Part shown: in pieces, positions 41,241 through 56,548 of the stretch
Numbering within the stretch: position 1 is the stretch's first letter
Layout of the letters: each line of letters begins with the position of its first letter
Source: Catellatospora citrea
Lineage (GTDB): Bacteria; Actinomycetota; Actinomycetes; Mycobacteriales; Micromonosporaceae
Direction of reading: 5' to 3'
Length of the DNA: 64,000 bases
NCBI RefSeq assembly: GCF_003610235.1
Contig: NZ_RAPR01000001.1
Location: 3,100,001-3,164,000 of the forward strand
Notes under the pieces: model-generated
The model's input: only the letters and a program-made list of their open reading frames with translations
Told to the model about the DNA's origin: nothing
Database searches by the model: none
Translations under genes and position numbers: made by a program

Positions 41241-42494
41241 TTAGTGATCGCCTGAGGGCGAGTCCGCTGCTACAAGCGCGGGCCAGGAGATCACGATCGT
41301 GCCGTTGGTTTTGTCCATCACCTTGGCATCGGCGTGCAGGCGGGAGTGGTCGCTGCCGGTAGGCCAGTACGTGAACGTGGGTACGGTGTGCCGTCCGGCT
41401 CGGTACCACGCCTGGACTTGTTCGGTGAGCGCGGCGGCGGCCAGCTTCGCGTCCCCGCCGTAGGCGCGGACGCCGAATTCCGCTGCGTCATCTTGCGGCA
41501 CGTCGCGCAGCATGAGGTATGCGAGCCCGGCTCCGCGTACGGCCGCGAACGGCAGCCACCGCTCCTTGGCCGTCAGGTCGGTTCCCTGCTCGGCGGACAG
41601 GCGGCAGAACCCGTTGAGGAACCAGGCGAGCCACAGGTGTAGGTCGGCGAAGGAGACGCCGTGGCCGATCGTGATGCCCGACCATGACTCGGCCGTGCCG
41701 GCGGTTAACACGCCGTCGAGCTGCGCGGGGTCGCTGGGTGCGCCGGAGTCGAACGAGAGGGTTACTTTGCAGCCGGTGGCGTCGGTCAGCTCGATGTGTT
41801 TGTGGGGGCGTGAGCCCTCGCCCTGCATGGGTACGAAGCCCGCTATCTCGGTTGCGGTGCTGATGAGGTGGTCGCCGTTTCGGCGGAAGCCGATCACGCG
41901 CGTGACGTAATTCATGATCAGCGGGACTACGAGAAGGCCGTCCGGTTGCAGCTGGTGGAGCCAGGCAGGGGCGATGTTCCATGCCCCGACCGTGACGATG
42001 ATCGCGTCGAACGGGGCCTCATCCGGCACGCCGTGCTCGGCGTCGGCGACCAGGACGCGGACGCGGATGCTGTAGCCCGTCGCGTCCAGCGCGGTCGCGG
42101 CCCGGTCGATCACCTCCGGGTCGATGTCGATACTGACGACCCGCCCCTCTGGGCCGACGACCTCGGCGATGTAGGCCGCGTTGAGCCCACCGGAACCGAC
42201 CTCCAGCACTCTCATACCGGGACGCAGTTGGGCCAGCTCCAGCATCGCGGCCTGGATGTACGCCGCGGACACCGAAGACATCGCCTGGTCCTGCGCGTCA
42301 CGCTTGGTCACCACGGGTTTGTCGTAGCCGTAGACCACTGCCAGGTCGGTATCGGCGGGCATGAAGCCTTCGCGTGGCACGCGAAGAAACGCCTGCTCCA
42401 CCGTATCGGAAAGGATCTTTCCTTGGTCGCGTAGCTGCGCAACGAGCGCTTTTCGCATCTGGGCGGCGCGGTCGGTGTCCACCATCTGGACCAC
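41241..42494 (-). CDS. PCMT-like methyltransferase, FxLD-system type
   Basis: The 417-residue protein has an N-terminal SAM-dependent domain like protein-L-isoaspartate methyltransferase: QAMSSVSAAYIQAAMLELAQ, motif I VLEVGSGGLNAAYIAEVVG, then VVSIDIDPEVID and FDAIIVTVGAWNIAPAW. The C-terminal 200 residues are extra. This architecture matches methyltransferases annotated with FxLD-family lanthipeptides, but no LanB/LanC enzyme or FxLD precursor is nearby. GTG start with AGGAG upstream. It is the last gene of the minus-strand cluster, 62 bp after the PIG-L gene. The target may be a peptide, a protein or the cluster's product. Confidence 0.75.
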   Translation of the reverse strand: MVQMVDTDRAAQMRKALVAQLRDQGKILSDTVEQAFLRVPREGFMPADTDLAVVYGYDKPVVTKRDAQDQAMSSVSAAYIQAAMLELAQLRPGMRVLEVGSGGLNAAYIAEVVGPEGRVVSIDIDPEVIDRAATALDATGYSIRVRVLVADAEHGVPDEAPFDAIIVTVGAWNIAPAWLHQLQPDGLLVVPLIMNYVTRVIGFRRNGDHLISTATEIAGFVPMQGEGSRPHKHIELTDATGCKVTLSFDSGAPSDPAQLDGVLTAGTAESWSGITIGHGVSFADLHLWLAWFLNGFCRLSAEQGTDLTAKERWLPFAAVRGAGLAYLMLRDVPQDDAAEFGVRAYGGDAKLAAAALTEQVQAWYRAGRHTVPTFTYWPTGSDHSRLHADAKVMDKTNGTIVISWPALVAADSPSGDH

Positions 42495-42556
42495 TCGGAA
42501 CTCCTTTGCTCGGATCAGGTGGCGCCCTGCCCCAGGGTCACTCGTTTCTATGGGGG

Positions 42557-43174
42557 TTACAGGCCGTCGGCGGCTGGCAGTCGACCGAGGACCGGCATCG
42601 GCTGGAAGGCTTCGGCGTAAGTGGTGCCGGTGCGCATTCCGTGCAGTCGGCCGAGTGTTTCGACCATCGGCCAGAAGTGGCTGGTGATCGGTTGGGATGC
42701 ATGTGCACAGGCGGCCCGCTGCTTGAGGTCCCAGGTGGCTGAGACGTCGACGATGACAGGGAGGTGCAACGGGCGGCCGTACATGTCGAGGCCGTTGTAT
42801 CCGTCGCAGTGGTAGACGCGGGCGGGGCGTCCGTTCGCGATAACGACCTCCGGCAGTACGGCCAGCAGCGTGGTGGCGGTGGTGCGGTGTGCGGGGTGGA
42901 TGTCCTCGGGGCTGTGAGTGATCACCGCATCGGGTTGTAGACGGGTGAGTAGGTCGGCAACGGTGTGTGTGGCCAGGTCGTCGAGTAGCTCGCATTCGGC
43001 GCCGAGCAGCTTGGCACCTGCCTCGGCCTCGCCGTCCCTGGTCGCGTTGCTGCGGGGGACGGCTACGACGGTGCGGCCTCCGGCGCGGGCGTGGGCGGCC
43101 AGCGTCCCGCCCGCCCACAGTTCGGCGTCGTCGGCGTGGGCCATGAATGCGAGCAACGTGCCATGGCTCACCAT
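42557..43174 (-). CDS. PIG-L family N-acetyl-sugar deacetylase
   Basis: Zinc-dependent deacetylase of the PIG-L/LmbE/MshB family, 205 residues. The zinc motif A12-HADDAE-18 replaces the usual AHPDDAE, and the third ligand is in EDIHPAHRTT. Family members remove acetyl groups from GlcNAc-like residues, as in mycothiol or tunicamycin assembly. Here a deacetylation of a GlcNAc-type glycoside made by the nearby glycosyltransferases is plausible. Its ATG overlaps the end of the exonuclease gene by 7 bp. Confidence 0.85.
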   Translation of the reverse strand: MVSHGTLLAFMAHADDAELWAGGTLAAHARAGGRTVVAVPRSNATRDGEAEAGAKLLGAECELLDDLATHTVADLLTRLQPDAVITHSPEDIHPAHRTTATTLLAVLPEVVIANGRPARVYHCDGYNGLDMYGRPLHLPVIVDVSATWDLKQRAACAHASQPITSHFWPMVETLGRLHGMRTGTTYAEAFQPMPVLGRLPAADGL

Positions 43175-44076
43175 AAGCCGAGTTCCTCTACCAGATCTGC
43201 GGGCTTGGGCAGCAGCGGGCTGGGCTCGCCGGTTGGGGTGCACGGCACGTCGAGGTCGGTTTGCAGTCTGATCATGTTGCGCCATTTCAGCGCTAGTTCG
43301 AATTGTTCGGCGACGTGCCTGCCGCGGCCGCTGGCGAGGCGTCCTGAAGCGGGCAGTTCATCGAGGGAGAGCCCCTCGGCGAGCAGTTTCGCCGCAGTGG
43401 TGGCACCGATGCCGTGGACGCCGGGGATCTCGTCGGCCGGGTCACCGGACAGCGCTCGGAAGTCCGCCCATTGGGCGGGGGTGACGGCGTGGCGGCGGAA
43501 CACCTCGGCCGGGGTGACCAGTCGCTGGCCCGCGCGGAACTTCGTGTTGAGGACCACTACGCGGTCGTCGATGAGCTGGTAGTAGTCCTTGTCCCTGGTC
43601 ATCATGAGGATTGGTCGCGGCGGTGGGGTGCGGCTCACGATCGTGGCGATGACATCGTCGGCCTCGGCGTGTTCCATCTCGGCCCAGCTGATACCGACCA
43701 GGTTCAGGCCCCGTTTCACGTCGGGAAGGAACTGCAGCGGCAGAAGTGCGGCGTCATCGGCTGGGCGGCTGGCCTTGTAGCCCTCGTGGGTTTCCTTGCG
43801 GTCGGCGCCGCCGTGCTCGCCGTCGAACACCACGAGCACCTCGGGTTGGCCGCCGGGCACGTCTTCGCGGATCGCGACGCGCAGGAGCGCGAAGAACGCG
43901 AACAGGCCGGTGAGCAGCCGCGTCTTGTCGCGGGAGTAGATAGGTGCGGGGAATCCGAAGGTGCCGCCCCATAGAAGGTTGTGGCCGTCGACGAGCAGCA
44001 GCGGAACCATGTCGGGTGCGGCAGGCTCAGTACCGGGGATGGGAAGCATCGGCTGCAGGTGCGGTGTCCCGCCCAT
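43168..44076 (-). CDS. 5'-3' exonuclease (FEN/PIN-like domain)
   Basis: The 302-residue nuclease is of the bacteriophage-T5/Pol I 5'-exonuclease type. Acidic metal ligands occur in LLVDGHNLLW, VVFDGEHGG, EMEHAEADDVIA and TRDKDYYQL. The helix-hairpin-helix segment DEIPGVHGIGATTAAKLL binds DNA. It is separate from polymerase I. In a small-molecule pathway a nuclease would be odd, so its place in this coupled block hints at a nucleic-acid step. ATG overlaps the GT4 stop as TGATG. Confidence 0.88.
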   Translation of the reverse strand: MGGTPHLQPMLPIPGTEPAAPDMVPLLLVDGHNLLWGGTFGFPAPIYSRDKTRLLTGLFAFFALLRVAIREDVPGGQPEVLVVFDGEHGGADRKETHEGYKASRPADDAALLPLQFLPDVKRGLNLVGISWAEMEHAEADDVIATIVSRTPPPRPILMMTRDKDYYQLIDDRVVVLNTKFRAGQRLVTPAEVFRRHAVTPAQWADFRALSGDPADEIPGVHGIGATTAAKLLAEGLSLDELPASGRLASGRGRHVAEQFELALKWRNMIRLQTDLDVPCTPTGEPSPLLPKPADLVEELGLW

Positions 44077-45173
44077 CAGCTCACCGCCTTTAGCAGAAGG
44101 TCAGCAACGAGGGCGGGCCGATAGTCCCGGCTGCGGTAGTAGCCGGCCCGTGAAGTCTGTTCGTAGCGTACTGGGTCGGCCAGCAGTTCCCCAGCGGCAC
44201 GCCACAGACCTCCTGGGCCTTCGCTGATCGGCACGATGATGCCACCGTCGCCCACCAGGGCGGGCAGGTTGTCGACATCGTGTGCGACCACCGGCGTGCC
44301 AGCGGCGAGCGCTTCCAGCGCAACGAGCCCGAACGTCTCGGCCAGCGACGGCACGATCACCACGGATGCGCTGCCGAGCCAGGACGGCACCTGAGTCCAC
44401 GCCAGGCCGCTGCGCAACACGATGCCCGCCCGGTTGGCTAGTTCCCGACAGAGAGTGAGGTGCTTGTGCTGGGCGCCCGGGGCCGACTCGAATCCGGCTG
44501 CTGAGACCGCTACCTCGACCAGGCGTGACATCTGTGCCTGGCGGCCCGCTGCGAGCAGCGGCGCGATGCCTTTCTCCTCGCCGAGCCTGGCGAGCACGCG
44601 TACGGGGCCGTGCTGGCGTAGCGACCGGCGTTTGGGCTCAGACGTCGGCCCGGTGTCGACGAGCAGAGTGTTCGGCACAACTTGCCACCCGGAGATCTCG
44701 TAGCGGTGGCCGGCCGCGCGCAGCACGTGCTCGGATGGAGCTATCACCACCTCCGCACGCTGTAGTGCGGCGTCCATGTCTTCGCGGTGGCCGATCACGT
44801 GTACTGCCAGCACCGGTTTCGTGTGCCCGCCGATGGGCACGGCCCGGCCGAGTCCCCACAGCGCGTCAACGTAGACCGCAGCGGCGGCGCGGTGTCGTTG
44901 GTAGATCCGCTGGAGCTCGCGGGTCAGCCTGGAGCCTGCGGTCGAGATCGCCGCCCGTAACGTCTCGTCGCTACACGGGCGCGGGATCTGCAAGGACTCC
45001 AGGGTGCAGACGGTGGCTCCCTCGTACGCTGGTGCTTGGTCCGGCTCGGCGGTGATGATTACCGCGTCGTGACCGGCCGCGACGAGCGCGGCGGCGTGGG
45101 CGGCCACGGCTCGTTCCATCCCGGCTGCGGCGTCAGGGCGCCAGGATACGAGCACGAATGCGATGGCGCTCAT
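44076..45173 (-). CDS. Family 4 glycosyltransferase
   Basis: The 365-residue GT-B enzyme has an N-terminal acceptor domain (SAIAFVLVSWRPDAAAGMER). The C-terminal donor domain has VRVLARLGEEKGIAPLL and the E-x7-E motif in SLAETFGLVALEALAAG, then TPVVAHDVDNLPALVGDGG. Retaining GT4 enzymes use UDP-GlcNAc, GDP-Man or similar donors; MshA is a distant relative. With the PIG-L deacetylase it could form a GlcNAc-then-GlcN unit. It overlaps the phosphoribosyltransferase by ATGA. Confidence 0.88.
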   Translation of the reverse strand: MSAIAFVLVSWRPDAAAGMERAVAAHAAALVAAGHDAVIITAEPDQAPAYEGATVCTLESLQIPRPCSDETLRAAISTAGSRLTRELQRIYQRHRAAAAVYVDALWGLGRAVPIGGHTKPVLAVHVIGHREDMDAALQRAEVVIAPSEHVLRAAGHRYEISGWQVVPNTLLVDTGPTSEPKRRSLRQHGPVRVLARLGEEKGIAPLLAAGRQAQMSRLVEVAVSAAGFESAPGAQHKHLTLCRELANRAGIVLRSGLAWTQVPSWLGSASVVIVPSLAETFGLVALEALAAGTPVVAHDVDNLPALVGDGGIIVPISEGPGGLWRAAGELLADPVRYEQTSRAGYYRSRDYRPALVADLLLKAVS

Positions 45174-45727
45174 GGGTTGATCCGCCGTGGGAGTGGTAGC
45201 GGTTCCTGCGGCTGGCCGCCTGGCAGGTGCCCTTCCCAGGGGAAGCGAACCCAGTCGCCCACCGTCCACGCCCACAGGTCGGGCCGGATGGGCGATCCCT
45301 CGTTGAGGCACAGCGTGACGGTCAGCACGCGGGCGTCGGGGGCCACTAGCGGATGCAGCGATGGGCGCAGTGCGTCGAATGTAGCTCCGGTTCCGCAGAT
45401 GTCGTCAACCAGGACTACCGGCCCCGGCAATCGATGGCCTTCCAAGGCGGCGCTGAGCGTGGTGACGTCGGTGGTGACCTGTCCGGTCGCCTGACTGTAG
45501 AGGTCGTCGGTGGCGTTGTGGCGGGCGGCGACCCAGAACCTGCTGGTGACAAGTTTCGCGGCGAGTTTCTCGGCTGGGACCAGGCCGCCGTTGGCGATGC
45601 CGATGATCGCGCCGGGCTGGCCGAAGCGGGTGACCAGCGCTGAGCCCAGCATGCCGATGGCGTGGTCGACCACCTCGTCGGTCAGGGTCAGGACCCTGGT
45701 GTGGGCGAACGTGCGTTGGCTGGTCAT
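45170..45727 (-). CDS. Purine-type phosphoribosyltransferase
   Basis: The 185-residue type I phosphoribosyltransferase has the PRPP-binding motif VVLVDDICGTGATF and an N-terminal IIGIANGGLVPAEKLA loop. The fold is that of xanthine/hypoxanthine/guanine phosphoribosyltransferases. In toyocamycin-type pathways a phosphoribosyltransferase handles a 7-deazapurine base, so preQ0 or a derivative is a reasonable substrate guess. It overlaps both neighbours by 4 bp. Confidence 0.85.
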   Translation of the reverse strand: MTSQRTFAHTRVLTLTDEVVDHAIGMLGSALVTRFGQPGAIIGIANGGLVPAEKLAAKLVTSRFWVAARHNATDDLYSQATGQVTTDVTTLSAALEGHRLPGPVVLVDDICGTGATFDALRPSLHPLVAPDARVLTVTLCLNEGSPIRPDLWAWTVGDWVRFPWEGHLPGGQPQEPLPLPRRINP

Positions 45728-46653
45728 GCCGCACCGTCCGAGCCGGTCAGGGCCAGGTCGGCGGCCGATTGCAGGGGACGGAGCCCGGAGATGCTCAGCG
45801 CTTGATCGCCGTTGCGCCAGACCCGGCCGTCGGCGCGGATAACGGTGAACCCGGCCGCTGACCGGCGTGATCGCAGGCGCACCTGCATCCCGGCCGGAAC
45901 CTTCAAGGCCGACACAAGCGCGCTGGCACGCTCGTCGGTCAGCATCTCGGCGCTCAGGCTGGCACCCGCCCCAATCGGCAGCATCTGCAGCAACGTCACG
46001 CCGAGAGCGCCGAGGTCGGCAGCCAGGTCGATGACCTGCTGCGCCGCTTGGTAGTTGCGCTGCATGAGCACCGTCTGCAACTGGACGGGAATCTGGTGCG
46101 CCACGGCCGCGCGTACCCCGTCACAGCCGCGTTGGAAGCTGCCCTCGCCACGCATGCGGTCGTGGGTGTTGGCGTCGGGCCCGTCGAAGGAGACACGGAT
46201 CGCGTCCAGCCTGTCCAGCTCCTTGGCGCGCCGGGCCAGGTGCCAGCCGTTGGTGGTGACGGAGACGACGGAACGGCCGCCGGCGGCGACTCGGCCCGCT
46301 CGCGCGGGAAGGTCGCGTAGCAGCAGCGGCTCGCCTCCGGAGATGTCGACGCCGAGCAGGTCGGCTTCGGCGAGGATCCCAGCGATGCGTGCCTGGCCGG
46401 TTCGGTCGAGTTCGCGTACGGAGATGTCGTCCAGGCACTGGGGGCAGTGCAGGTTGCAGCGCACGATTGGTGACCAGCACACGCTAACGGGGGTGGAGCG
46501 TTCAAGTCGGGCGACGTCGGCCAGGGGCCATTGCGCAACCAGGGTGTCGTCCAGGGTGATCCGGCCGGGGTCCAGCTCGTGCGGGCTGAGGTGGGTCAGG
46601 CCCACGGCGGGGTCGTGCACGAGGCGACCGGCCGCGGAGAATACTCGTTTCAT
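45724..46653 (-). CDS. Radical SAM enzyme
   Basis: The 309-residue radical SAM protein has the [4Fe-4S] motif CNLHCPQC (C-x3-C-x2-C) in IVRCNLHCPQCLDD. The GGE motif is DISGGEPLLLRDLP, and TTNGWHLARRA and IRVSFDGPDANTHD are further typical strands. No SPASM cysteine cluster is visible at the C-terminus. The reaction is unknown; candidates are a C-C or C-N rearrangement on the glycan or base. It overlaps the genes on both sides by ATGA. Confidence 0.85.
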   Translation of the reverse strand: MKRVFSAAGRLVHDPAVGLTHLSPHELDPGRITLDDTLVAQWPLADVARLERSTPVSVCWSPIVRCNLHCPQCLDDISVRELDRTGQARIAGILAEADLLGVDISGGEPLLLRDLPARAGRVAAGGRSVVSVTTNGWHLARRAKELDRLDAIRVSFDGPDANTHDRMRGEGSFQRGCDGVRAAVAHQIPVQLQTVLMQRNYQAAQQVIDLAADLGALGVTLLQMLPIGAGASLSAEMLTDERASALVSALKVPAGMQVRLRSRRSAAGFTVIRADGRVWRNGDQALSISGLRPLQSAADLALTGSDGAA

Positions 46654-47690
46654 CGCAACTCCTGCGCGGTTTGTAGAAGACGCTGCGCGGTGGCGGCGAG
46701 CTGGTCGGCTCGGCCGCAGGGGGCGGGCTGCTCAAGCAGTTGCCGGAAGTAGGCGACCCTTTCGGCGGCTGTGGCGAACTTGGCCTGCCACTGTTGTTGT
46801 GCGTCGGGCGGGTCGATGTGGTAGCCGCGGACCTGCCGCAGCGGAGCTACTTTGCAGCCCGCTGCGATGAGTGCCGCGCCGAGGTGGGTGTCTTCGCTTC
46901 CCCAACCGGACGCATCGAACCCGGCGTCGAACCCGCCCACTTCGAACACCGCTGCGCGAGGGACGGCCACCAGCGCTGTGACGACCATGCGGGGCAGGTC
47001 CCAGTCGTGGTAGGCGCGCCCGAAGCCCAGCGCCACGAACTCGTCGGTGTGGTCGAGCGGATGCCCGGTGAATGGCTGGTCGTAGACCTGGCCGGTGTAG
47101 AACATGGGCACCCCGGCCGGTGCGCGCCAGCAGACACGGTGGTCGGCGCGCAGATCCGGCTCACTGCTCGGCACCACTGCCCGGCCGTGCCCGGCAGACG
47201 CGTACGGGATTCCATGGCGGAACCCGACCAGCACCAGCTCCGGATGCGCCCGCACGGCGATGTCGGCCAGCACATGGCGGGGTAGCACCATGTCGGCGTC
47301 CAGGTAGACAACCGTGTCCGCCTCGGCGAGATAGGTGCCGACGTTGCGCGCCGCCGCGCCACCTACCCGATCAGGCAGCCGCCAGGTGACATCGACGACG
47401 GGGTGGCTGGCCGCGACCGCTGTGGTGTCGTCGCTGGAGGCGTCGTCTATGACGATCACCTCGAATGTGCCGGAGGTGTCCTGCGCGCCGAGCGCATCGA
47501 GCACCGTCGCGAGGCTGTGCTCGGCGTTGCGGGCGGGGATTACCACCGACAGCGACGTCCCTGACGCCTTGGTCGCCGCGGTGACGCTGTGCCAGTCGAC
47601 TTTTCTCGCCCAGCAGATTGCCTCAGCGATCTGCCGGTAGTCGTTGTCCCGGTGAGCCAGCGCCCGGCTCAGCGTGTCTCTCACGGTCAC
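46650..47690 (-). CDS. Family 2 glycosyltransferase
   Basis: The 346-residue GT-A enzyme has LSVVIPARNAEHSLATVLDA, the nucleotide-binding VIVIDDASSDDT and the metal-binding DxD as VVYLDADMVLP. GWGSEDTHLGAAL resembles the galactosyltransferase C-terminal ED motif. Inverting GT2 enzymes transfer one sugar from a UDP-sugar. The GTG at 47690 is chosen because it makes a GTGA overlap with the previous gene, as at most other junctions of the block. Confidence 0.87.
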   Translation of the reverse strand: MTVRDTLSRALAHRDNDYRQIAEAICWARKVDWHSVTAATKASGTSLSVVIPARNAEHSLATVLDALGAQDTSGTFEVIVIDDASSDDTTAVAASHPVVDVTWRLPDRVGGAAARNVGTYLAEADTVVYLDADMVLPRHVLADIAVRAHPELVLVGFRHGIPYASAGHGRAVVPSSEPDLRADHRVCWRAPAGVPMFYTGQVYDQPFTGHPLDHTDEFVALGFGRAYHDWDLPRMVVTALVAVPRAAVFEVGGFDAGFDASGWGSEDTHLGAALIAAGCKVAPLRQVRGYHIDPPDAQQQWQAKFATAAERVAYFRQLLEQPAPCGRADQLAATAQRLLQTAQELR

Positions 47691-48175
47691 CACCCCCAAT
47701 CGGTGAGGACGGCGTGGGCTTGGGGCCAGCCGTGGGCGTGGTCGTAGATCCAGAACACGCGTGGCCGCTGCGGCAGTGCCAGAAGGTCGGCCAGCAGGGT
47801 CAGGTAAAGCGGCTCGGCCACGACGAGTAGTTCTTCGGGCATGCCGTGCGAGGTGATCTCAGCATCGACGGCCTGCTTGACGTGCGGCCTCAGCTGCTCG
47901 GCACGCGCGGTATCCAGCGGCCGGTCGTATGGCTCGAGCCGGGTTTCGGCGGTGATCCAGCCGTGCTGGGCCGACAGGAACCGCACACGGGACCGCAGCC
48001 CAGGCCGCTCGCCCAGCCATTGCCGCAGGGGCGGCACCACACCTCCGTCGTAGAGGTCTAGCGCCGGCAGGGCTCCCCGGCCGAGCGTCTTCTCTTTCGA
48101 GCAGGCGACGACGACCATGCGCTGCTGATAATCGACTCCCGGTCGGTGTTCGAGGTTGGTCATGCGTGATTTCAT
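47687..48175 (-). CDS. YaaA/DUF6884-like protein
   Basis: The 162-residue protein has the pattern VVVACSKEKTLGRG, then ALDLYDGGVVPPLRQW, VRFLSAQHGWITAETRLEPY and a C-terminal VFWIYDHAHGWP. The spacing Cys-Ser-Lys ... LYDG ... SAQHG ... PYD resembles DUF6884 and YaaA proteins, whose biochemistry is poorly known. I suspect a link to tRNA-guanine-transglycosylase-like proteins, which use 7-deazaguanines, but cannot show it. Coupled by ATGA to the FGE-like gene and by GTGA to the GT2. Confidence 0.65.
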   Translation of the reverse strand: MKSRMTNLEHRPGVDYQQRMVVVACSKEKTLGRGALPALDLYDGGVVPPLRQWLGERPGLRSRVRFLSAQHGWITAETRLEPYDRPLDTARAEQLRPHVKQAVDAEITSHGMPEELLVVAEPLYLTLLADLLALPQRPRVFWIYDHAHGWPQAHAVLTDWGW

Positions 48176-48753
48176 GCCGTTCTCACCACCCGGATGCCGA
48201 TGCCGGGCGAGCACCGCTCTGCGTGCACGGCGTTGAGGAACGTGGTCTGCCCGTACAGCGGGCGCGAGGCGTAGGAGCCGCCCCTGATCCAACGGCCACC
48301 GCCCATGACCTGCGAGGCGGTCCACTCCCACACGTTGCCCGCGAGATCCAGCACGCCCTGTGGAGTTGCGCCAGCCGGATAGGCGCCCACCGGTGCCGGG
48401 CCGTCGAACACTGCATCGTGGCGGAGCCTGGCCAGGTGCGGTGCCCAGTCCTGCTCGCCCCAGGGGAACCTGCGCCGTTGAGGCCCGGCGGCGATCCACT
48501 CCCATTCCACCGAGGTCGGCAGCCTGCCGCCGACTTCTATGGCCAGGCGGGCTGCGGCTCGGTGGTTTAGGCCGATCACCGGCATCAGCGATGGGCCGTC
48601 GAGGTTGACCTGGCTGCACGTCAACGGGGTGGCGGTCACCAGAAGGTCAGCCACCGGGCGGGGCCGGGCGGCGTCTCCGAACAAGCACGTCCCACCGGGG
48701 ATGTGAATCCAGTTCAGCGTCTCGGTGGGGGCCGTATGCGGCTTCATCAGCAT
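48172..48753 (-). CDS. FGE-sulfatase/C-lectin-fold protein without catalytic Cys pair
   Basis: The 193-residue protein matches the SUMF1/FGE domain: WIHIPGGTCLFGD, GRLPTSVEWEWIAAG, RRFPWGEQDW, DLAGNVWEWTAS, RWIRGGSY and GIGIRVVR. The copper-binding Cys pair of formylglycine-generating enzymes, near SY, is absent: SYASRPLYGQ stands there instead. It is therefore unlikely to oxidise cysteine. Such folds also serve in EgtB-like enzymes, ligand-binding proteins and diversity-generating retroelement targets. GAGGTG precedes the ATG. It starts 7 bp after the reverse-transcriptase gene. Confidence 0.8.
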   Translation of the reverse strand: MLMKPHTAPTETLNWIHIPGGTCLFGDAARPRPVADLLVTATPLTCSQVNLDGPSLMPVIGLNHRAAARLAIEVGGRLPTSVEWEWIAAGPQRRRFPWGEQDWAPHLARLRHDAVFDGPAPVGAYPAGATPQGVLDLAGNVWEWTASQVMGGGRWIRGGSYASRPLYGQTTFLNAVHAERCSPGIGIRVVRTA

Positions 48754-48760
48754 CGTCACC

Positions 48761-49549
48761 TCACCCGTCGATGAGAAACAGGTCTTCGGCCAAAGCCAGG
48801 TACGGCGGCCGGATCTGGGTCTTGCGCGCATTCGGAGCCAGCCCGACCACCGCCAGCGCCTGCGTGATGTCCGATACCGCCGTGGCGGCCTCATCGCCGC
48901 TTCGGGCGCACGCGATGTAGTTGTCGGCGAACCGCACGACTCGGAGGTGCCCGAGCCGGGCGTCAGCCTGCGCGAGGCGCAGCTGGAACAGGACCGGCCA
49001 CAGGCCGCTGCCGGGGACCAGCGGTGACGGCAGTCCCTCTACCGCCCGGCGGAACAGCGCCAGGAAAGAGCCGTCCTGCACGTACTGGGCCAGCCAGCCC
49101 GTCAGCTCCTGGGCGCTGCTGCCAGCGGACGCAGCCGCGACATCGACGTCAGCCAGCCACGCCGAGCCGCCGTGCAGGTGGGCGTCCACCTGGCGGAGCG
49201 CGGTGATCCTGTTGCGTCCGGGCCGGTATCCCGACACCCAGTCGGCAAGTACCGCCGCGTCGAGGATGGGGTCGAGGATGTGCCGCAGGGCGCGGTGGAC
49301 GATGCGGTCCTCCACGGTGGGGATCACGGCCGGGAACTGCTTTCCCGCGTAGCTGGTCAGCTGCACCGTCCGCAGCGGGCCAGGGGTCCACTGCCCGCTG
49401 TGGATCCGGGCGGCGAGGTCGGCAAGCCTGGCCCGCATGCCTTTCCGGTAGGCCGCCCAGGACATCCCGTCCGCGCCCGGAGCGCTGCTGCGGCGCATGC
49501 ACGTCCGGGCGACTGGCACGAGATGCTTCGCATCGATGAGCAACGGCAT
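48761..49549 (-). CDS. Degenerate group-II-intron-like reverse transcriptase
   Basis: The 262-residue RT-like protein has G25-ADGMSW and the block IHSGQWTPGPLRTVQL. AVIPTVEDRIVHRALRHIL (residues 74-92) and GYRPGRNRITALRQ (107-120) follow, all close to group II intron RTs. The catalytic motifs are altered. Motif A is D134-V-D136 without the following aromatic residues. The usual QG-x-x-x-SP is PGSGLWPV (179-186). Motif C is F207-A-D209-N210 and not YADD. Domain X and the endonuclease are missing. It may be inactive, RNA-binding or repurposed. No good ribosome-binding site precedes ATG 49549. Confidence 0.8.
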   Translation of the reverse strand: MPLLIDAKHLVPVARTCMRRSSAPGADGMSWAAYRKGMRARLADLAARIHSGQWTPGPLRTVQLTSYAGKQFPAVIPTVEDRIVHRALRHILDPILDAAVLADWVSGYRPGRNRITALRQVDAHLHGGSAWLADVDVAAASAGSSAQELTGWLAQYVQDGSFLALFRRAVEGLPSPLVPGSGLWPVLFQLRLAQADARLGHLRVVRFADNYIACARSGDEAATAVSDITQALAVVGLAPNARKTQIRPPYLALAEDLFLIDG

Positions 49550-49577
49550 GAGGGAGTGCGTGGGTGAGTGTCGATGC

Positions 49578-49689
49578 GCTAGGCTGTTTTCAGCCTGGAC
49601 GGCTGGAACGATCCCAACGCCTCGCATCTGAGGCCCGCTATCCAACACGCGCGGGCTAACGCGCTGGGAACGACGGCCCCGTCCAGGTC
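49578..49689 (-). ncRNA. Candidate structured RNA between queE and the RT gene
   Basis: On the minus strand CCTGGACGG pairs perfectly with CCGTCCAGG about 80 bases later. The stem continues with CGTTCCCAGCG/CGTTGGGATCG and an inner GCCCGC/GCGGGC. A second hairpin, AGGCTG-AAAA-CAGCCT, follows directly, then the RT start. It could be an RT-associated RNA, a leader or a complex terminator of the que transcript. Confidence 0.4.
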
Positions 49690-49694
49690 GTTTG

Positions 49695-50417
49695 CTATCT
49701 GCCACGGGTGTCACCCCACACCAGCACGTGCAGGCGGGTGCTCAGGTTCCAGCCGCGCTCGATCACCTCGTCGGCGATCTGCCGGGTCCGGGCGATGACC
49801 TGCTCCGGTTTGGCGCCCTCCGGCATGATCCAGATCTCGGTCAGGCCGAACTCCCGTTGAAGGCTGGCCACCTCCTGCAGGTCTGCCGGATCGGACACCA
49901 CGAACTTGAACCGCGCTTTGCCGGTGGCCTCCAGCGCCTTCAACGCGGCGCCGACGATCCGCCTAGGTTCGTCGTCGGATGGGGCGAAGCTGGCCAGCTT
50001 CGGCGAGACGTTGAACGCCGTCACCGCACCTGCCACCGCCGTGGTGGGGGCGAAGGTGCCGTTGGTCTCGATCTCCACTTCGCGGCCAGCTGCGGCCAGT
50101 GCGCGCACCACCGGATCCAGCAGCTGCTGCTGGATCAGCGGCTCACCCCCGGAGATCACGACGAGCCGGGTCGGATGTCCCAGCGCCCACGCCACCAGCT
50201 CCTCACCAGAGATCTTCTGGGTCTGCTCGGCGGCGTCGAAGCGCGACCAGTCCCAGGTGTAGGGCGTGTCGCACCGGCCACAGGTCAGGTTGCAGCGCGA
50301 CAGCCGGATGAACAGCGCCTGCCTTCCCGTGCTCGGCCCCTCGCCCTGCACGGTCGGTCCGAAAATCTCTGACACCAGCAGGGGCCGGTGCGGCATAGCA
50401 GCCAGCAGCGCGGTCAT
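49695..50417 (-). CDS. queE: 7-carboxy-7-deazaguanine synthase
   Basis: Radical SAM enzyme that contracts 6-carboxytetrahydropterin to 7-carboxy-7-deazaguanine, the third step to preQ0. The 240-residue protein has SEIFGPTVQGEGPSTG and the cluster motif CNLTCGRCDTPYTWDW. VVISGGEPLIQQ and IETNGTFAP follow. These are standard for QueE. Its ATG overlaps the queD stop side by 4 bp (50414-50417), indicating coupled translation. It ends the folE-queC-queD-queE block. Confidence 0.95.
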   Translation of the reverse strand: MTALLAAMPHRPLLVSEIFGPTVQGEGPSTGRQALFIRLSRCNLTCGRCDTPYTWDWSRFDAAEQTQKISGEELVAWALGHPTRLVVISGGEPLIQQQLLDPVVRALAAAGREVEIETNGTFAPTTAVAGAVTAFNVSPKLASFAPSDDEPRRIVGAALKALEATGKARFKFVVSDPADLQEVASLQREFGLTEIWIMPEGAKPEQVIARTRQIADEVIERGWNLSTRLHVLVWGDTRGR

Positions 50418-50791
50418 GGCCGCCTCCAGCGGTACTGGGCCCACGATGACGTCGTCTCGCTCACCCGCACCGTCACCGCGGACACCGACTCGGCAAGCGG
50501 CAGGTGCCCCACGCACCACTCGGTGAACAGCCGAGCCAGGTTTTCGCTGGTGGGCTGCACGGTGAGGACGTCGTTAAGGTGCTGGTGGTCGAACGCGATC
50601 TTGAGATAGTCGCCGAGCGGTGACAGCTGCGCGAAGTCCATCACGAAGCCCGGCGGGTCCAGGTAGTCGGCGTCCAGCTCAACCGTCACGGCGTAACTGT
50701 GGCCGTGCAGGCGGGCGCATTTGTGACCCTCGGGCAGGCCGGCCAGACGGTGCGACGCCTCAAACCGGAATGTCTTGGAGATGGTGAACAT
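50414..50791 (-). CDS. queD: 6-carboxy-5,6,7,8-tetrahydropterin synthase
   Basis: Converts dihydroneopterin triphosphate to 6-carboxytetrahydropterin. The 125-residue protein of the PTPS/QueD fold has the zinc ligands and catalytic Cys in FEASHRLAGLPEGHKCARLH, followed by GHSYAVTVEL. FVMDFAQLSPLGDYLK and FDHQHLND follow; the His-Asp-His set is normal. PTSENLARLFTEW is the conserved Glu-containing helix. The ATG forms TGATG with the queC stop. Confidence 0.95.
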   Translation of the reverse strand: MFTISKTFRFEASHRLAGLPEGHKCARLHGHSYAVTVELDADYLDPPGFVMDFAQLSPLGDYLKIAFDHQHLNDVLTVQPTSENLARLFTEWCVGHLPLAESVSAVTVRVSETTSSWAQYRWRRP

Positions 50792-51522
50792 CAGCCCACC
50801 TCGCGCGTCAGGTAGGCGGTCGGGTCCGCCACACGGGCCAGCGCGAAAGCCTCGCGCCGCTCGACGCACGTACCGCAGGTGCCGCAGTGCACGTCGCCGC
50901 CCTTGTAACACGACCAGCTGTCGCCGAACGGCACGTTGACCTGCTCGCCGATCGTCACGATGTCGCTCTTGGCCAAGCCGATGAACGGTGCCAGAACGGT
51001 GAACCCGTCCACGGCGAACCCGGCGTTGGCCAGCTGCGCCATACGGCGGTACGCGCTGACGAATGCCGGGCGGCAGTCGGGGTAAATCGGGTGGTCGCCG
51101 GAGTGCGCGCCGAACGCCACAGCACCGGCCCCGCGCGCGACGGCCACGGCGACGGCGATGTCGAGCATGAGCGCGTTGCGGTTGGGCACCACCGTGGCGC
51201 GCATCGACAAGTCCGTGTAGTGGCCATCAGGCACCGTGACGTCTCGGTCAGTCAGCGCCGACCCGGTGAGCAGACCTGTAATCGATGCCAGATCGATGAC
51301 GTGGTGTTCAGCTCCGAGACGGTGCGCGGTCCGGGACGCATATTCGAGCTCGCGGCGGTGCCGCTGGCCATAGTCGAACGACAGGGCGGTCAGCTGTGCG
51401 CCGTCGGCGCGCAGCCGGTAGGCCAGCACGGTGCTGTCCAAGCCTCCGGACAGGACCAGGACTACATGGCGGGGGATCGAATCGGCGGGGACGCTCAGCG
51501 CACCCAGGGCGGAGGTAGTCAT
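50791..51522 (-). CDS. queC: 7-cyano-7-deazaguanine (preQ0) synthase
   Basis: ATP-dependent enzyme that turns 7-carboxy-7-deazaguanine into preQ0. The 243-residue protein has the PP-loop VVLVLSGGLDSTVLAYRL, FDYGQRHRRELE and the nucleotide-binding GAHSGDHPIYPDCRP. The zinc-binding cysteines are in SWSCYKGGDVHCGTCGTC. It overlaps folE by 4 bp (ATGA). With folE, queD and queE it completes preQ0 synthesis from GTP. Confidence 0.96.
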   Translation of the reverse strand: MTTSALGALSVPADSIPRHVVLVLSGGLDSTVLAYRLRADGAQLTALSFDYGQRHRRELEYASRTAHRLGAEHHVIDLASITGLLTGSALTDRDVTVPDGHYTDLSMRATVVPNRNALMLDIAVAVAVARGAGAVAFGAHSGDHPIYPDCRPAFVSAYRRMAQLANAGFAVDGFTVLAPFIGLAKSDIVTIGEQVNVPFGDSWSCYKGGDVHCGTCGTCVERREAFALARVADPTAYLTREVG

Positions 51523-52133
51523 CGTGCGCCCTCCCCCGCCATGGCCATGAACTGGGCACGCGCGGCCGGGTCGGCCAGGCTACCCCGCCAGGTGCTGGTG
51601 GTGACAGTGCTGCCCATCGCTCCCGCTCCGCGCAGAGTCATGCACATGTGCTCGGCCGTGACGACTACCGCGGCGCCGCCTGGCTTCAGCTGTGACTCCA
51701 GCCAGTCACCGAGCTGCTGGGTCAAGACCTCCTGGATCTGAGGCCGCGCCGCTGCGGACGAGAGGAGACGGGCGAGCTTGGATAGGCCGAGAATGCGCTC
51801 GCCCGGCAGGTAGCCGAGGTGGGCCGTGCCGACGAACGGCAGCATGTGGTGGGCGCACAGCGACACGAACGGAACTTGGCGAGCCAGCACCAGCTCCCGG
51901 TAGCCCGCCTCGTTGGGAAACACGGTGGGGACGTACTCGCGCGGAGTAAGCAGCTCGGCGTATGCCTTGACCATCCGGGCCGGGGTCCGCTGAGTGGACG
52001 GGGTGTCCAGCGGTACGCCGAGCGCGGTCAGTAGTGCCGCCGCGGCCCTTTCGGCGGCGTCTTGGTCGATCATTGGTCGGAGCGACGATGCCGGCGTCAC
52101 CGGCGGAGTCTCCGTAGCGATGAGCGGGAGCAC
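51519..52133 (-). CDS. folE: GTP cyclohydrolase I, cluster copy
   Basis: Converts GTP to dihydroneopterin triphosphate, the entry step to both folate and 7-deazaguanines. The 204-residue protein has the zinc and active-site residues in SLCAHHMLPFVGTAHLGYLP and the second Cys in EHMCMTLRGAG. The closing STVTTSTWRG motif is typical. Position at the head of folE-queC-queD-queE indicates a pathway-dedicated copy; a separate folate copy is expected elsewhere. GTG start with GGAGGA upstream. Confidence 0.95.
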   Translation of the reverse strand: MLPLIATETPPVTPASSLRPMIDQDAAERAAAALLTALGVPLDTPSTQRTPARMVKAYAELLTPREYVPTVFPNEAGYRELVLARQVPFVSLCAHHMLPFVGTAHLGYLPGERILGLSKLARLLSSAAARPQIQEVLTQQLGDWLESQLKPGGAAVVVTAEHMCMTLRGAGAMGSTVTTSTWRGSLADPAARAQFMAMAGEGAR

Positions 52134-52290
52134 AGGCTTCCTCCGGAGTAAGGTCTGCTGCTCATGGCGCAGAGTCCTGCGGATAGGGGTGTAGTTCTCG
52201 GTGGCGCACCGCGAGATCTCGCGTATGAGTGCTCGCGGGTTTGCGCAGGTCCGGCGACAAGCGCGCCGAACCCGGCGCGCTTGGGGTCAG

Positions 52291-52752: not shown

Positions 52753-52834
52753 CGTCTCCTCCAGGTACGCGTTCGGTTTGCCGGGTGGCCCGGCCCGCCA
52801 TGCGTGGGCCGAGCGGGGAACTAGGGGGTGGCTG

Positions 52835-53737: not shown

Positions 53738-54375
53738 GACGGGCTGTCACCCTTCTGGGTCGATGTCGAGGGTTGGGGGTCGCGCCACATGGGCCACAGG
53801 GGCGGACCGTCGTCGGGCAGGTAGAACGGGTCCCGGGCGGCGTACCCGTGCCGTAGGTAGAGGTCGCGGTTGCGGGGCATGCTCGCTTCCAGGTACGCGG
53901 GGATGCCTTCGGCGTCGAGTTGGGCGTGGTGGTGCCGCAGGAGAGCCGACCCGATCCCCCTGGACTGCTCGCTCGGCAGGACGCCCAGGAACAGCAAGTG
54001 GTGGTGGAACACGCCGTGCGGGTGGTGATCGTCGAAGGTCTTGTCCAGCACCTGGAACCGGTTGGCCCAGAAGCCGGTGGCGGTGGCGAGCCGCTGGTCG
54101 TAGTTGTCCGGCCCAGGTGTGTCGTCGTCGCGTGGGAGCCAGATCGCCACACCGGTCCGGTCGGTGGTGACCTCGACGATGCCGCGCTCCAGACCGTGGT
54201 TGAGAAACACCTCGAAGTACCGCAGGTAGACCATTCGGCGCTTGCCGATCTCCGGGATGAGCCAGTCCCCGACCGGTGAGATAAGGAAGGCGTCGGTGAG
54301 CAGGACTGACAGCCACTCGGTGTCGGTGGTTCCGGCGCGGCGGACAGCGGTGGCCCGCACAGAGGTGGGGTTCAT
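53734..54375 (-). CDS. GNAT family acetyltransferase
   Basis: The 213-residue acetyl-CoA-dependent transferase has the motif A pyrophosphate loop in FLGVLPSEQSRGIGSALLRH and motif B in AYLEASMPRNRDLYLRHGY. It may acetylate an amino group on the cluster's product or on a competing metabolite; self-protection is one possibility. It overlaps both neighbours by ATGA, so it is translated together with the permease gene and the CU044_5270-like gene. Confidence 0.85.
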   Translation of the reverse strand: MNPTSVRATAVRRAGTTDTEWLSVLLTDAFLISPVGDWLIPEIGKRRMVYLRYFEVFLNHGLERGIVEVTTDRTGVAIWLPRDDDTPGPDNYDQRLATATGFWANRFQVLDKTFDDHHPHGVFHHHLLFLGVLPSEQSRGIGSALLRHHHAQLDAEGIPAYLEASMPRNRDLYLRHGYAARDPFYLPDDGPPLWPMWRDPQPSTSTQKGDSPS

Positions 54376-55889
54376 CGCGGTGCCGCCTCGGTGAGTCTCG
54401 GCACCAGGGCGAAGGGGTTGGCAGCCGGCATGGCGTTCGCGCCGAGCCCGATCGCGGCGTACACGTCGGGCCGCCATGCCTTGAGCAGGCCCGCCCACCC
54501 GAGGCCCAGCACGGCCGCGACGGCGAACGCTGCCGGGAACGCCCACCGCAGCGGCGAGGCCTGGTCGACGCCGAGGAGCACGTCGAACTGCGCGACGGTC
54601 AGGTACAGCACCCAGCCCAGCGCGACGCTGGCCAGCAGCGGCGCGGCGATCCGCCGCCAGAAGGACTCGCCGCGGCTGTCACGGCCGAAGAAGCCGATCA
54701 CGGCGGCCGAGGTCAGCGTCATGAGGATCAGGACGCCGAGACCGCCGCAGACGGTGATCCAGAAGAACAGGTGCACGATCGGGTCCGCCCCGCCCAGCGC
54801 GTAACCGACCAGCACCACGAACGCCAGCGCGCTCTGCGTGATCGACCCGGCTTTCGGCGCGCCCGTGCGACGACTGGTGCGCCCGAGCACACCGGGTAGG
54901 ACCTGCTCGCGGCCGAGGGAGAAGAAGTAGCGGCCTACGGTGTGGTGGAACGACAGCAGCGCGGCGAACAGCGAGGTCACGAACAGCATGTGGCCCAGGT
55001 CGACGAAGAACTGTCCGAGGTGCGGCTGTACCAGCGTGAAGATCAGCTCGGTGGAGTGTTCCTGCGCGGCGGCCACGATGTTGTCCGGGCCGGTGGCTAC
55101 GGTCAGCGCCCACGCCGACAGCCCGTACAGCAGGCCGGTGACCGCCACCGCGATGAACGTCGCGCGGGCCACCGTGCGTTTGGGGTCGCGGGTCTCTTCG
55201 GAAAACACCGTGGTCGCCTCGAACCCGACGAAGCCGGTCAGCGCCGTCACCAACGCCGCGCCGATGCCCGCGCTCGTCAGGAAGGTGGGCGACAGCGCCG
55301 CGAAGCTAACTCCGACTTCTGCCGGATGAGCGACCATCACCACGGCGAACACGGCGGCGACCGCGACCTCGGCCAGCAGCATGACCGCCAGGACGAGCCC
55401 GTTGAGGTCGATCCGCAGGACGCCGAGCACCGCGACGACGGCCCAGCCTGCCAGCGCGCACAGCCACCAGGTGACATCGATGCCGAACCGGTCGCCCAGC
55501 CAGCCGGACAGCACGGCCCCGAAACCGCCGTACAGGCCGATCTGCATGGCGTTGTAGGCCAGCAGCGCGACGAACGCGGCACCGACACCAGCCGGTCTGC
55601 CCAGGCCATGGCTGACGTAGCTGTAGAACGACCCGGCGTTGACCAGGTGCCGGGACATCGCCACGTAGCCGACCGCGAACAGCGCCAGGATGACCGCCAT
55701 CGCCAGGTACGCGACGGGGATGCCCTGGCTGCCGGTGATGGCGAAGCCGCTGGTCGCGCCACCTGCCGTCACGGTCAGTGGTGCGGCGGCGGCCATCACG
55801 AAGATCACGACCGAGGCGGTGCCCAGGCGGCTGCGTGCCAGTGTGTTGGCCACGTTGCTCGATGTCGCGGTTCTGCTGGAGGTACGCAT
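54372..55889 (-). CDS. APC family amino-acid/polyamine permease
   Basis: The 505-residue membrane protein has about twelve helices and the APC signatures GSFYSYVSHGLGRPAGVGAA and GFVGFEATTVFSEETRDPKRT. GRYFFSLGREQVLPGVLGRT is typical of helix 8. It probably imports or exports an amino acid, amine or related compound. It could deliver a precursor or export the product of the linked cluster. The ATG has GGGAG upstream; a longer upstream frame is not needed. Confidence 0.88.
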   Translation of the reverse strand: MRTSSRTATSSNVANTLARSRLGTASVVIFVMAAAAPLTVTAGGATSGFAITGSQGIPVAYLAMAVILALFAVGYVAMSRHLVNAGSFYSYVSHGLGRPAGVGAAFVALLAYNAMQIGLYGGFGAVLSGWLGDRFGIDVTWWLCALAGWAVVAVLGVLRIDLNGLVLAVMLLAEVAVAAVFAVVMVAHPAEVGVSFAALSPTFLTSAGIGAALVTALTGFVGFEATTVFSEETRDPKRTVARATFIAVAVTGLLYGLSAWALTVATGPDNIVAAAQEHSTELIFTLVQPHLGQFFVDLGHMLFVTSLFAALLSFHHTVGRYFFSLGREQVLPGVLGRTSRRTGAPKAGSITQSALAFVVLVGYALGGADPIVHLFFWITVCGGLGVLILMTLTSAAVIGFFGRDSRGESFWRRIAAPLLASVALGWVLYLTVAQFDVLLGVDQASPLRWAFPAAFAVAAVLGLGWAGLLKAWRPDVYAAIGLGANAMPAANPFALVPRLTEAAPR

Positions 55890-55918
55890 GTAAGAAACTC
55901 CCAAGGGATGAGGGTGGG

Positions 55919-56548
55919 TCAGGTGCGGTGCGCGAGCACCGCTTCGCCGATGGCGGCGTGGGTGTGGAACAGCAGCCAGCGCATCGGAGGCCATAGGGTG
56001 CCGACCTGGTGGTTGAGGAACTCGTACGTGGTTGTGGGGGCACCGTCCAGCAGGAACGACTCCAGCCCGGTGGCCCGCGCCAGTCCGGCCAGCGACAGCT
56101 CGTCGTAGCCGAGCGGTTCATGCCGCCGCAGCCGTAGGGACAGCAACGCCCACGGCCGGGCCGCCTCGTTCATGTCCACCGGCACGTAGATGACGCCGGT
56201 CTGGCGACCGAGCCTGCGCACTGCGGTCACGCGAACGTGCCCGCCGCGCAGGAGGCGCTGTGCGATCTGGTACGCGGCCTCTCTGCTGAGGAAGGCCAGC
56301 CACGTGCGTACGTCGTGCCGGCGGCCTTCCTCGGCGACGAGCTGGTCGAGCACGGTGTGCATCAGCGAGTCGTCGGGCGGCTTGCGGTCGGTCACGGCGA
56401 CCGCGCCTTCCTTCACCACGATGCGCCGTTCGCGGATCAGCTCAGCGAGTAGCGCGGCGGCGCAGCCGAGGTCCACGGCGGTGGGGTGCAGCCGTGGCTT
56501 GCCGGTGACGTCGTGGTGGGCGAGCCGGTAGTAGTTGTCTGCGAGCAC
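55919..56548 (-). CDS. GPP34 (GOLPH3-like) protein
   Basis: The 209-residue protein is like bacterial GPP34 proteins, with LADNYYRLAHHDVTGKPRLH, a helical AAALLAELIRERRIVVKEG and DDSLMHTVLDQLVAEE. Eukaryotic GOLPH3 binds phosphoinositides and glycosyltransferases at the Golgi; the bacterial role is unknown but these proteins are common in actinomycetes. A membrane tether for the glycosyltransferases of this cluster is speculation. GTG start with GGAGGG upstream. It is the first gene of the minus-strand series. Confidence 0.75.
   Translation of the reverse strand: MLADNYYRLAHHDVTGKPRLHPTAVDLGCAAALLAELIRERRIVVKEGAVAVTDRKPPDDSLMHTVLDQLVAEEGRRHDVRTWLAFLSREAAYQIAQRLLRGGHVRVTAVRRLGRQTGVIYVPVDMNEAARPWALLSLRLRRHEPLGYDELSLAGLARATGLESFLLDGAPTTTYEFLNHQVGTLWPPMRWLLFHTHAAIGEAVLAHRT

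What the first reader, a model, noticed from the sequence alone, without database searches (positions are those of the whole stretch)
41241..56548. Nineteen-gene preQ0, reverse transcriptase and glycosylation cluster
A full preQ0 pathway (folE-queC-queD-queE) shares strand and spacing with a second block: RT-like protein, FGE-like protein, YaaA/DUF6884-like protein, GT2, radical SAM, phosphoribosyltransferase, GT4, 5'-3' exonuclease, PIG-L deacetylase and PCMT-like methyltransferase. An APC permease, a GNAT enzyme and a GPP34 protein lie upstream. Known preQ0 outlets are queuosine in tRNA, archaeosine, DNA 7-deazaguanine modification and nucleoside antibiotics such as toyocamycin. None that I know of uses this set. 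The mixture of sugar chemistry and nucleic-acid enzymes suggests either a glycosylated 7-deazaguanine product or a nucleic-acid modification. I cannot tell which.
Basis: partly seen in the sequence, partly recalled or inferred. Interest (0 to 1): 0.9.

Follow-up and report, generated by a model that had tools for sequence, protein, structure and literature searches.

The report
RT-like protein in preQ0 sugar pathway
Some soil actinobacteria share a conserved gene set that appears to build a sugar-decorated 7-deazaguanine compound, and it includes a stripped-down reverse-transcriptase-like protein whose active site has been rebuilt, which may mean that an enzyme known for copying genetic material was recruited into small-molecule chemistry.

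Summary
Thirteen genes, folE to PIG-L (window 52133-42557, minus strand), form one tightly packed operon. Among 49 actinobacterial loci found through the RT-like protein, 46 have queC, 48 FGE, 48 DUF6884, 47 the phosphoribosyltransferase, 46 GT4 and 45 the 5'-3' exonuclease; most misses are contig ends. In 151 genomes (own plus 150 relatives) the RT-like and FGE-like genes occur in the same six. The outer genes (GPP34, APC, GNAT, two ORFs, PCMT) are not conserved.

The RT-like protein has a group II-type fold without a thumb. In 46 of 46 sequences compared, YxDD is xxDN, the aromatic sugar gate is Ser/Thr, and one finger Lys and the finger Arg are lost; two metal-binding Asp are kept. The DUF6884 model resembles YaaA, a family to which DpdC has been assigned.

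Best reading: a biosynthetic pathway that makes a preQ0 5'-nucleotide, reacts its nitrile and adds sugars, with variable amino-sugar tailoring. What the RT-like protein and exonuclease do is unknown; a (ribo)nucleotidyl-transfer role is inferred. No TGT match in the own genome argues against queuosine or dpd. I found no description in the papers searched.

The parts
51519..52133 (-). folE, GTP cyclohydrolase I (first preQ0 step)
   Evidence: Pfam PF01227 E 1.2e-51; hit in 19 of 49 relative loci
50791..51522 (-). queC, preQ0 synthase
   Evidence: Pfam PF06508 E 1.4e-60; 46 of 49 loci; the only QueC match in the own genome
50414..50791 (-). queD
   Evidence: Pfam PF01242 E 3e-30; 29 of 49 loci
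49695..50417 (-). queE, radical SAM
   Evidence: Pfam Radical_SAM E 1.6e-07 and position after queD; 30 of 49 loci
48761..49714 (-). RT-like protein: fingers and palm only, FADN at motif C, Ser at the sugar-gate position
48172..48759 (-). FGE-sulfatase/C-type-lectin-like protein without a conserved Cys
   Evidence: PF03781 E 7.1e-20; 48 of 49 loci; no invariant or nearly invariant Cys among 20 sequences
47687..48175 (-). DUF6884 protein (YaaA-like fold; DpdC has been assigned to this family); proposed preQ0-nitrile enzyme
46650..47684 (-). GT2 glycosyltransferase
   Evidence: PF00535 E 1.8e-17; 41 of 49 loci, missing in the seven class B loci and in the cut locus L037
45724..46653 (-). radical SAM protein (MoaA/BlsE/SkfB-like)
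   Evidence: PF04055 E 1.8e-12; matches SkfB and cytosylglucuronate decarboxylase among solved structures; 40 of 49 loci
45170..45727 (-). purine-type phosphoribosyltransferase
   Evidence: PF00156 E 2.2e-11; best solved relatives are purine phosphoribosyltransferases, with shared VDD and FPWE motifs; 47 of 49 loci
44076..45173 (-). GT4 glycosyltransferase
   Evidence: PF13692 E 3e-20; 46 of 49 loci
43168..44076 (-). 5'-3' exonuclease (5' nuclease domain of the DNA polymerase I type)
   Evidence: PF02739 E 2.1e-25 and PF01367 E 3e-16; aligned to Taq polymerase's 5' nuclease, acidic residues invariant among 21; 45 of 49 loci
42557..43144 (-). PIG-L family deacetylase
   Evidence: BshB1-type match E 6e-12, below its cut-off; same ORF cluster as an L064 protein with PF02585; 38 of 49 loci by tblastn

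Best explanation
This is a dedicated actinobacterial biosynthetic gene cluster for a glycosylated 7-deazaguanine nucleotide or nucleoside. Inferred order: FolE, QueD, QueE and QueC make preQ0; the phosphoribosyltransferase converts preQ0 to its 5'-monophosphate; the DUF6884 enzyme attacks the nitrile (water to give the carboxamide, or an amine); GT4 adds an N-acetylated sugar that PIG-L deacetylates; a second glycosyltransferase (GT2 in class A, a second GT-B in class B) extends it; the radical SAM enzyme and variable aminotransferase, Gfo/Idh, methyltransferase or WbqC genes tailor the sugar. The RT-like protein is probably not a genome-copying enzyme. It is a group II-type RT that lost its thumb, its sugar gate, one finger Lys and the base-stacking Arg but kept two metal-binding Asp and a second finger Lys, so it probably does a short (ribo)nucleotidyl transfer on, or holds, a bulky modified nucleotide, and the 5' nuclease trims or releases the product. 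Shown: gene content, conservation, co-distribution, motif losses, predicted folds. Inferred: every reaction after preQ0 and the product.
For: Conserved cassette in 49 loci; same six of 151 genomes for RT and FGE; correlated divergence; one packed operon. PRTase resembles purine PRTases. DUF6884 model matches YaaA; DpdC, assigned to DUF6884 in PMC11888242 and to DUF328, YaaA's family, in PMC12839542, turns dPreQ0 into dADG. ArcS converts preQ0 5'-monophosphate efficiently but not the base (PMC11298593 passages), which fits a PRTase-first order. Sugar tailoring differs between clusters: DegT aminotransferase, Gfo/Idh and methyltransferase (L036; families in 10, 11 and 7 loci), WbqC (L064, L067), PIG-L (L064), an aminotransferase and an MFS transporter (L067), a second GT-B (L064). 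RT motifs: xxDN 46 of 46, gate Ser/Thr 46 of 46, first finger Lys 0 of 46, finger Arg 0 of 46, second finger Lys (K125) 44 of 46, the two metal Asp 46 of 46. In G2L4 RT two finger lysines hold the triphosphate and the second Asp of the motif faces away from the active site (PMC12337344 passages), so Asn there need not abolish metal binding; MMLV RT F155V takes ribonucleotides better (PMC8857657 passage). No TGT match in the own genome.
Against: No product, expression or enzyme data. RT-like and 5' nuclease domains fit nucleic-acid chemistry better than ordinary sugar-nucleoside pathways. Loss of thumb, finger Lys and Arg and the third Asp could equally mean a catalytically dead binding protein. 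DUF6884 passes its Pfam cut-off only narrowly (31.8 vs 30 bits), and the DpdC link rests on family assignment and fold. Exporter or resistance genes were not looked for systematically. Twelve of 18 genomes with a strong QueC match lack this RT, so preQ0 synthesis itself does not need it. The 49 loci were chosen through the RT, so their counts cannot show clusters that lack it; only the FGE search tested that.
Confidence: 0.6

Rival explanations
1. A nucleic-acid modification or defence system: a glycosylated 7-deazaguanine is placed in DNA or RNA, with the RT-like protein and 5' nuclease acting on polynucleotides and DUF6884 acting as in dpd islands.
For: The RT fold and the 5' nuclease with its invariant acids and GIG motif are kept; DUF6884 is a family to which DpdC is assigned; PADLOC has related models for several of the proteins, strongest for general RTs.
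Against: No TGT-family match in the own genome, with 14 of 14 controls positive; no restriction or helicase domain among the conserved genes that were identified (not every conserved ORF was identified); PADLOC matches of PRTase and DUF6884 are weak and the rSAM is far below the viperin cut-off (37.5 vs 180 bits), although PADLOC viperin models match it at E 6e-16; amino-sugar tailoring differs between loci.
Confidence: 0.2
2. Nucleic-acid-scaffolded biosynthesis: the RT-like protein adds the deazaguanine nucleotide to an oligonucleotide, the sugars are built on that carrier, and the 5' nuclease releases the mature nucleotide.
For: Explains why RT-like protein and exonuclease are both present in classes A and B and show the highest distance correlation of the six pairs tested (0.93); the sugar gate is open for ribonucleotides and one triphosphate-type Lys remains.
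Against: No thumb, and one finger Lys and the Arg are lost, so grip on primer and nucleotide is doubtful; no Rfam family in the window and no gap over 23 bases between the 13 genes.
Confidence: 0.1
3. A diversity-generating retroelement: RT next to an FGE/C-type-lectin gene is the classic layout of RT plus variable protein (layout recalled).
For: RT and FGE are adjacent in class A; DGR RTs are among the structural neighbours and a Treponema variable protein among the sequence neighbours of FGE.
Against: No template/variable repeat pair: the 15 two-copy families found in 45500-52200 reach at most 86 % identity and none involves the FGE 3' end; that 3' region is conserved between loci; no gap over 23 bases between the 13 genes; motif C is DN.
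Confidence: 0.02
4. Chance neighbourhood of a que operon and unrelated genes.
For: Ten same-genus genomes lack it, and QueC occurs without RT.
Against: Conserved in 49 loci of many genera with correlated divergence.
Confidence: 0.01

Closest known systems
Huimycin / toyocamycin-type 7-deazapurine clusters
   Same: FolE, QueD, QueE, QueC in an actinobacterial cluster; huimycin carries N-acetylglucosamine on a preQ0-derived core (PMC7439116, passages read).
   Different: huiA-huiG hold one glycosyltransferase and one methyltransferase besides a regulator and the preQ0 genes; no RT-like, 5' nuclease, FGE-like or DUF6884 gene is in that table as shown.
dpd DNA-modification islands
   Same: DpdC is assigned to DUF6884 or DUF328; preQ0 genes are often nearby.
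   Different: No TGT-family match in the own genome; glycosyltransferases, PRTase, RT-like protein and PIG-L in the operon, no dpdD-K-type gene among its 13.
Group II intron and group II-like RTs (G2L4, CRISPR-RT, DGR RT)
   Different: Ends at the primer grip, no thumb; DN for DD, open sugar gate, one finger Lys and the Arg lost; sits in a biosynthetic operon.
Mycothiol/bacillithiol logic (GT4 then PIG-L deacetylase; logic recalled)
   Same: A GT4 in one operon with a BshB1-like deacetylase.
   Different: Far below the MshA (53.8 vs 462.5 bits) and BshB1 (45.8 vs 182.5) cut-offs; acceptor is probably a deazaguanine nucleotide (inferred).
CBASS type IV / qatABCD deazaguanylation
   Same: QueC-family chemistry used outside tRNA (PMC11996544 abstract; PMC13279940 passages).
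   Different: None of ten operon proteins matched a CBASS or Qat model in PADLOC (QueC itself was not in that scan). QueC here looks ordinary by eye; RT-like N-termini vary, N-termini of the others were not examined.

Membership tests
Group II intron / canonical reverse transcriptase | RT fingers-palm fold | tested here: met
Group II intron / canonical reverse transcriptase | Three catalytic Asp with xxDD at motif C | tested here: not met
   DN in 46 of 46 family members; DD in 27 of 27 comparators with letters there, of 33
Group II intron / canonical reverse transcriptase | Thumb domain | tested here: not met
   Model residues 54-315 match residues 2-272 of the 417-residue chain 6ar1_A, and the protein then ends; 48 of 50 RT ORFs end in Gly at the primer-grip motif, the other two are split over frames
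Group II intron / canonical reverse transcriptase | Intron RNA around the gene | tested here: not met
   No Rfam match in the 64-kb window at gathering thresholds
Diversity-generating retroelement | Template repeat and near-identical variable repeat | tested here: not met
   Direct repeats of 25+ bases in 45500-52200: best 86 % identity, none involves the FGE 3' end; the rest of the genome not searched
Queuosine tRNA modification | tRNA-guanine transglycosylase | tested here: not met
   PF01702: 0 of 1 own genome, 14 of 14 controls
dpd DNA modification | DpdA (TGT family) | tested here: not met
   Same search; a very divergent DpdA could escape
dpd DNA modification | DpdC-type nitrile enzyme | tested here: inconclusive
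7-deazapurine nucleoside biosynthetic cluster | Clustered preQ0 genes | tested here: met
   folE, queC, queD, queE contiguous
7-deazapurine nucleoside biosynthetic cluster | A 7-deazapurine metabolite made by the cluster | not testable with these tools
   Needs expression and mass spectrometry
Prokaryotic viperin | NCBIfam viperin model NF038283 above cut-off | tested here: not met
   37.5 bits vs cut-off 180; PADLOC pVip models give E 5.9e-16 without a cut-off
Copper formylglycine-generating enzyme | Paired active-site Cys near the C-terminus (recalled) | tested here: not met
   No invariant or nearly invariant Cys in 20 aligned sequences

The most novel reading that the evidence does not exclude
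A reverse-transcriptase fold has been recruited as a core enzyme of small-molecule biosynthesis: with an opened sugar gate, no thumb and rebuilt finger contacts it transfers a bulky 7-deazaguanine ribonucleotide (to a sugar phosphate, another nucleotide or a short nucleic-acid carrier), and the partner 5' nuclease processes or releases the product. It would be the first RT-derived enzyme known to me in a metabolic pathway, and the product a new class of glycosylated deazaguanine nucleotides.
Probability: 0.3. Interest if true: 0.95.

Novelty: new variant of a known kind. Interest (0 to 1): 0.8.

Why it matters
Known domesticated bacterial RTs work in defence, repair or diversification (recalled; the repair case in PMC12337344). 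A conserved RT-like protein inside a preQ0 and glycosyltransferase operon would extend the RT fold to metabolism and give a new outlet for preQ0. The set is a good genome-mining handle: RT-like, FGE-like and DUF6884 genes beside queC. The proposed order (PRTase, then nitrile chemistry on the 5'-monophosphate) can be tested with a few purified proteins.

Tried and rejected
DGR reading (RT beside FGE): rejected on repeats, conservation and lack of intergenic space. A conserved C-terminal Gly of the RT-like protein was first considered a modification or conjugation site; alignment with comparators places it at the FLG primer-grip motif, where the protein ends, so it is better read as a truncation point. 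GT4-RT fusions suggested by long ORFs in L066, L069 and L071 are overlapping frames of high-G+C DNA, not fusions. GNAT/APC as self-resistance: dropped, GNAT relatives occur in 95 of 151 genomes. The first genome-contig scan with the single RT found no relative; the alignment-based scan worked but is capped: 128 relatives, best 80 kept. Of 396 genomes sampled across the phylum, own included, only the own genome has the RT at E 1e-40, so the system is rare. The plasmid search gave one 41 % match, on a 5.7-Mb linear Embleya replicon with no annotated gene in that stretch. The DUF6884 profile found no solved structure by sequence, and Foldseek gave no match at E 0.001 for its model; YaaA came up only in the second look by VIA-align. 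GC content of the core equals the rest of the window (0.688), so no compositional sign of recent transfer. No RT tree was built.
Full report
WHAT IS THERE. The window lies in a 9.33-Mb genome. A genome of its family has an RT-bearing contig of 53,785 bases, the length of an Asanoa siamensis contig with the same match, so the host is probably Micromonosporaceae (inference; Asanoa's family recalled). The operon from folE (52133) to PIG-L (42557) is packed, with gaps from -20 to +23 bases, and PCMT follows after 62 bases.

THE CONSERVED UNIT. A profile of 26 RT-like proteins found 128 relatives in the genome collection, of which the best 80 (79 loci) were kept. L030-L074 are actinobacterial, 39-64 % identical; L075-L108 are more distant RTs (23-37 %) of other bacteria. 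With five loci from unnamed relatives (L025 is the same as L030), 49 distinct loci were compared by tblastn at E 1e-6: queC 46, queD 29, queE 30, folE 19, FGE 48, DUF6884 48, PRTase 47, GT4 46, exonuclease 45, GT2 41, rSAM 40, PIG-L 38 of 49. Contig ends explain the FGE and DUF6884 miss (L037), one of two PRTase misses (L037), two of three GT4 misses (L037, L073), three of four exonuclease misses (L037, L070, L073) and two of three queC misses (L034, L074). The others are real as far as held: L066 has no queC hit, L068 lacks PRTase, GT4 and rSAM and its exonuclease hit starts mid-protein (an apparent internal deletion), and L056 has no exonuclease or PIG-L hit. QueD is missing in 20 and queE in 19 of 49 (two of each cut off); many are of genera that I recall as Pseudonocardiaceae. 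Whether the missing genes lie elsewhere in those genomes was not tested; L051 and L054 show queD or queE near the end of the stretch. Some loci are close relatives or from one genome (L060/L061; L047, L052, L056 all Sciscionella marina), so 49 is not 49 independent cases.

TWO ARCHITECTURES. Class A (the window and most loci) runs queC-(queD-queE)-RT-FGE-DUF6884-GT2-rSAM-PRTase-GT4-exonuclease-PIG-L. A DegT aminotransferase, a Gfo/Idh/MocA oxidoreductase and a methyltransferase (domains checked in L036) recur in 10, 11 and 7 loci, mostly after PIG-L. Class B (L063, L064, L066, L067, L069, L070, L071) has no GT2 or rSAM hit; domains checked in L064 and L067 show WbqC in both, PIG-L and a second GT-B between RT and exonuclease in L064, and an aminotransferase and an MFS transporter in L067. 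L029 has a class B-like order plus a second, divergent block with queC, GT2, rSAM and PRTase. The common heart is QueC, PRTase, DUF6884, FGE, GT4, RT-like protein and 5' nuclease.

LINKAGE. In 151 genomes (own plus 150 relatives) RT matches at E 1e-60 or better occur in six and FGE matches at E 1e-20 or better in the same six; none of ten same-genus genomes has either. The other 13 genomes with RT matches (E 4e-20 or weaker, about 30 % identity) look like ordinary RTs. QueC at E 1e-40 or better occurs in 18 of 151, so 12 have it without this RT. In the stretches of 2.0-3.6 kb held around 17 non-cluster QueC matches only que genes were recognised; that is too short to exclude more distant neighbours. 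Cluster QueC is 37-43 % identical to the QueC of eleven of those loci. Distance matrices of RT against the six other core proteins correlate at 0.69-0.93 (0 of 1000 permutations, 40 loci). Shared host descent contributes to that, so it supports common inheritance rather than physical interaction. Of 396 genomes sampled over the phylum only the own one has the RT: the system is sporadic and rare.

MECHANISM. See Best explanation. Steps up to preQ0 are established biochemistry for these families. PRTase, nitrile and sugar steps are inferred from family and fold. The RT-like and exonuclease steps are guesses constrained by motif conservation.

LITERATURE. Six searches of an open-access full-text library aimed at this combination or at RT classes listed no paper that describes it; three more concerned component enzymes. 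'preQ0', 'reverse transcriptase', 'glycosyltransferase' and 'radical SAM' together gave zero papers. Passages were seen in PMC11888242, PMC7439116, PMC6884629, PMC12839542, PMC4244168, PMC13279940, PMC12337344, PMC8857657, PMC11298593 and PMC4834066, and the abstract of PMC11996544. Subscription papers are mostly not held and listings are capped, so an unseen description is possible. In the 2014 RT survey (PMC4244168) the string FADN does not occur in the main text.

VERDICT. A real, conserved and, as far as searched, undescribed system; most likely a biosynthetic pathway for a glycosylated 7-deazaguanine nucleotide; the domesticated RT-like protein is the surprising part.

Noticed in passing
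window 41241-42494 (-): FxLD-system methyltransferase (TIGR04364, 453 bits) at the end of the operon; no lanthipeptide cluster was looked for beside it.
   Followed up: no
window 57001-57873 (+): XRE/DUF5753 regulator divergent from the operon region; its ORF cluster (c18) has members in nine of the compared stretches, window included.
   Followed up: partly
L048, L051, L052, L053, L056, L064, L072: A 5-formyltetrahydrofolate cyclo-ligase-like gene (domain checked in L048) next to an HTH-family gene (c8) lies near the cluster in seven loci of several genera.
   Followed up: no
L040, L058, L067, L069, L070, L071 upstream of queC: A gene family divergent from queC in six loci; the L067 member joins an HTH domain to a peptide deformylase domain.
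   Followed up: no
L029 (orientation) about 500-3700: Second divergent block with queC, GT2, rSAM and PRTase beside a class B-like cluster: the two architectures appear to mix in one genome.
   Followed up: partly
L065, L072, L073: RT gene split over frames: sequencing error or decay; not mended.
   Followed up: no
L068: Apparent internal deletion from GT2 into the exonuclease, removing rSAM, PRTase and GT4.
   Followed up: no
L115-L125: A second QueC group (37-43 % identical to the cluster QueC) with queD in all eleven and queE in ten, in genomes without this RT; outlet unknown.
   Followed up: no
window 49565-49714 (-), RT residues 1-50: The disordered N-terminal tail of many class A RT-like proteins carries a conserved basic motif (GRGRRS ... 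GIVPAxQA), possibly a docking or RNA-binding tail.
   Followed up: no
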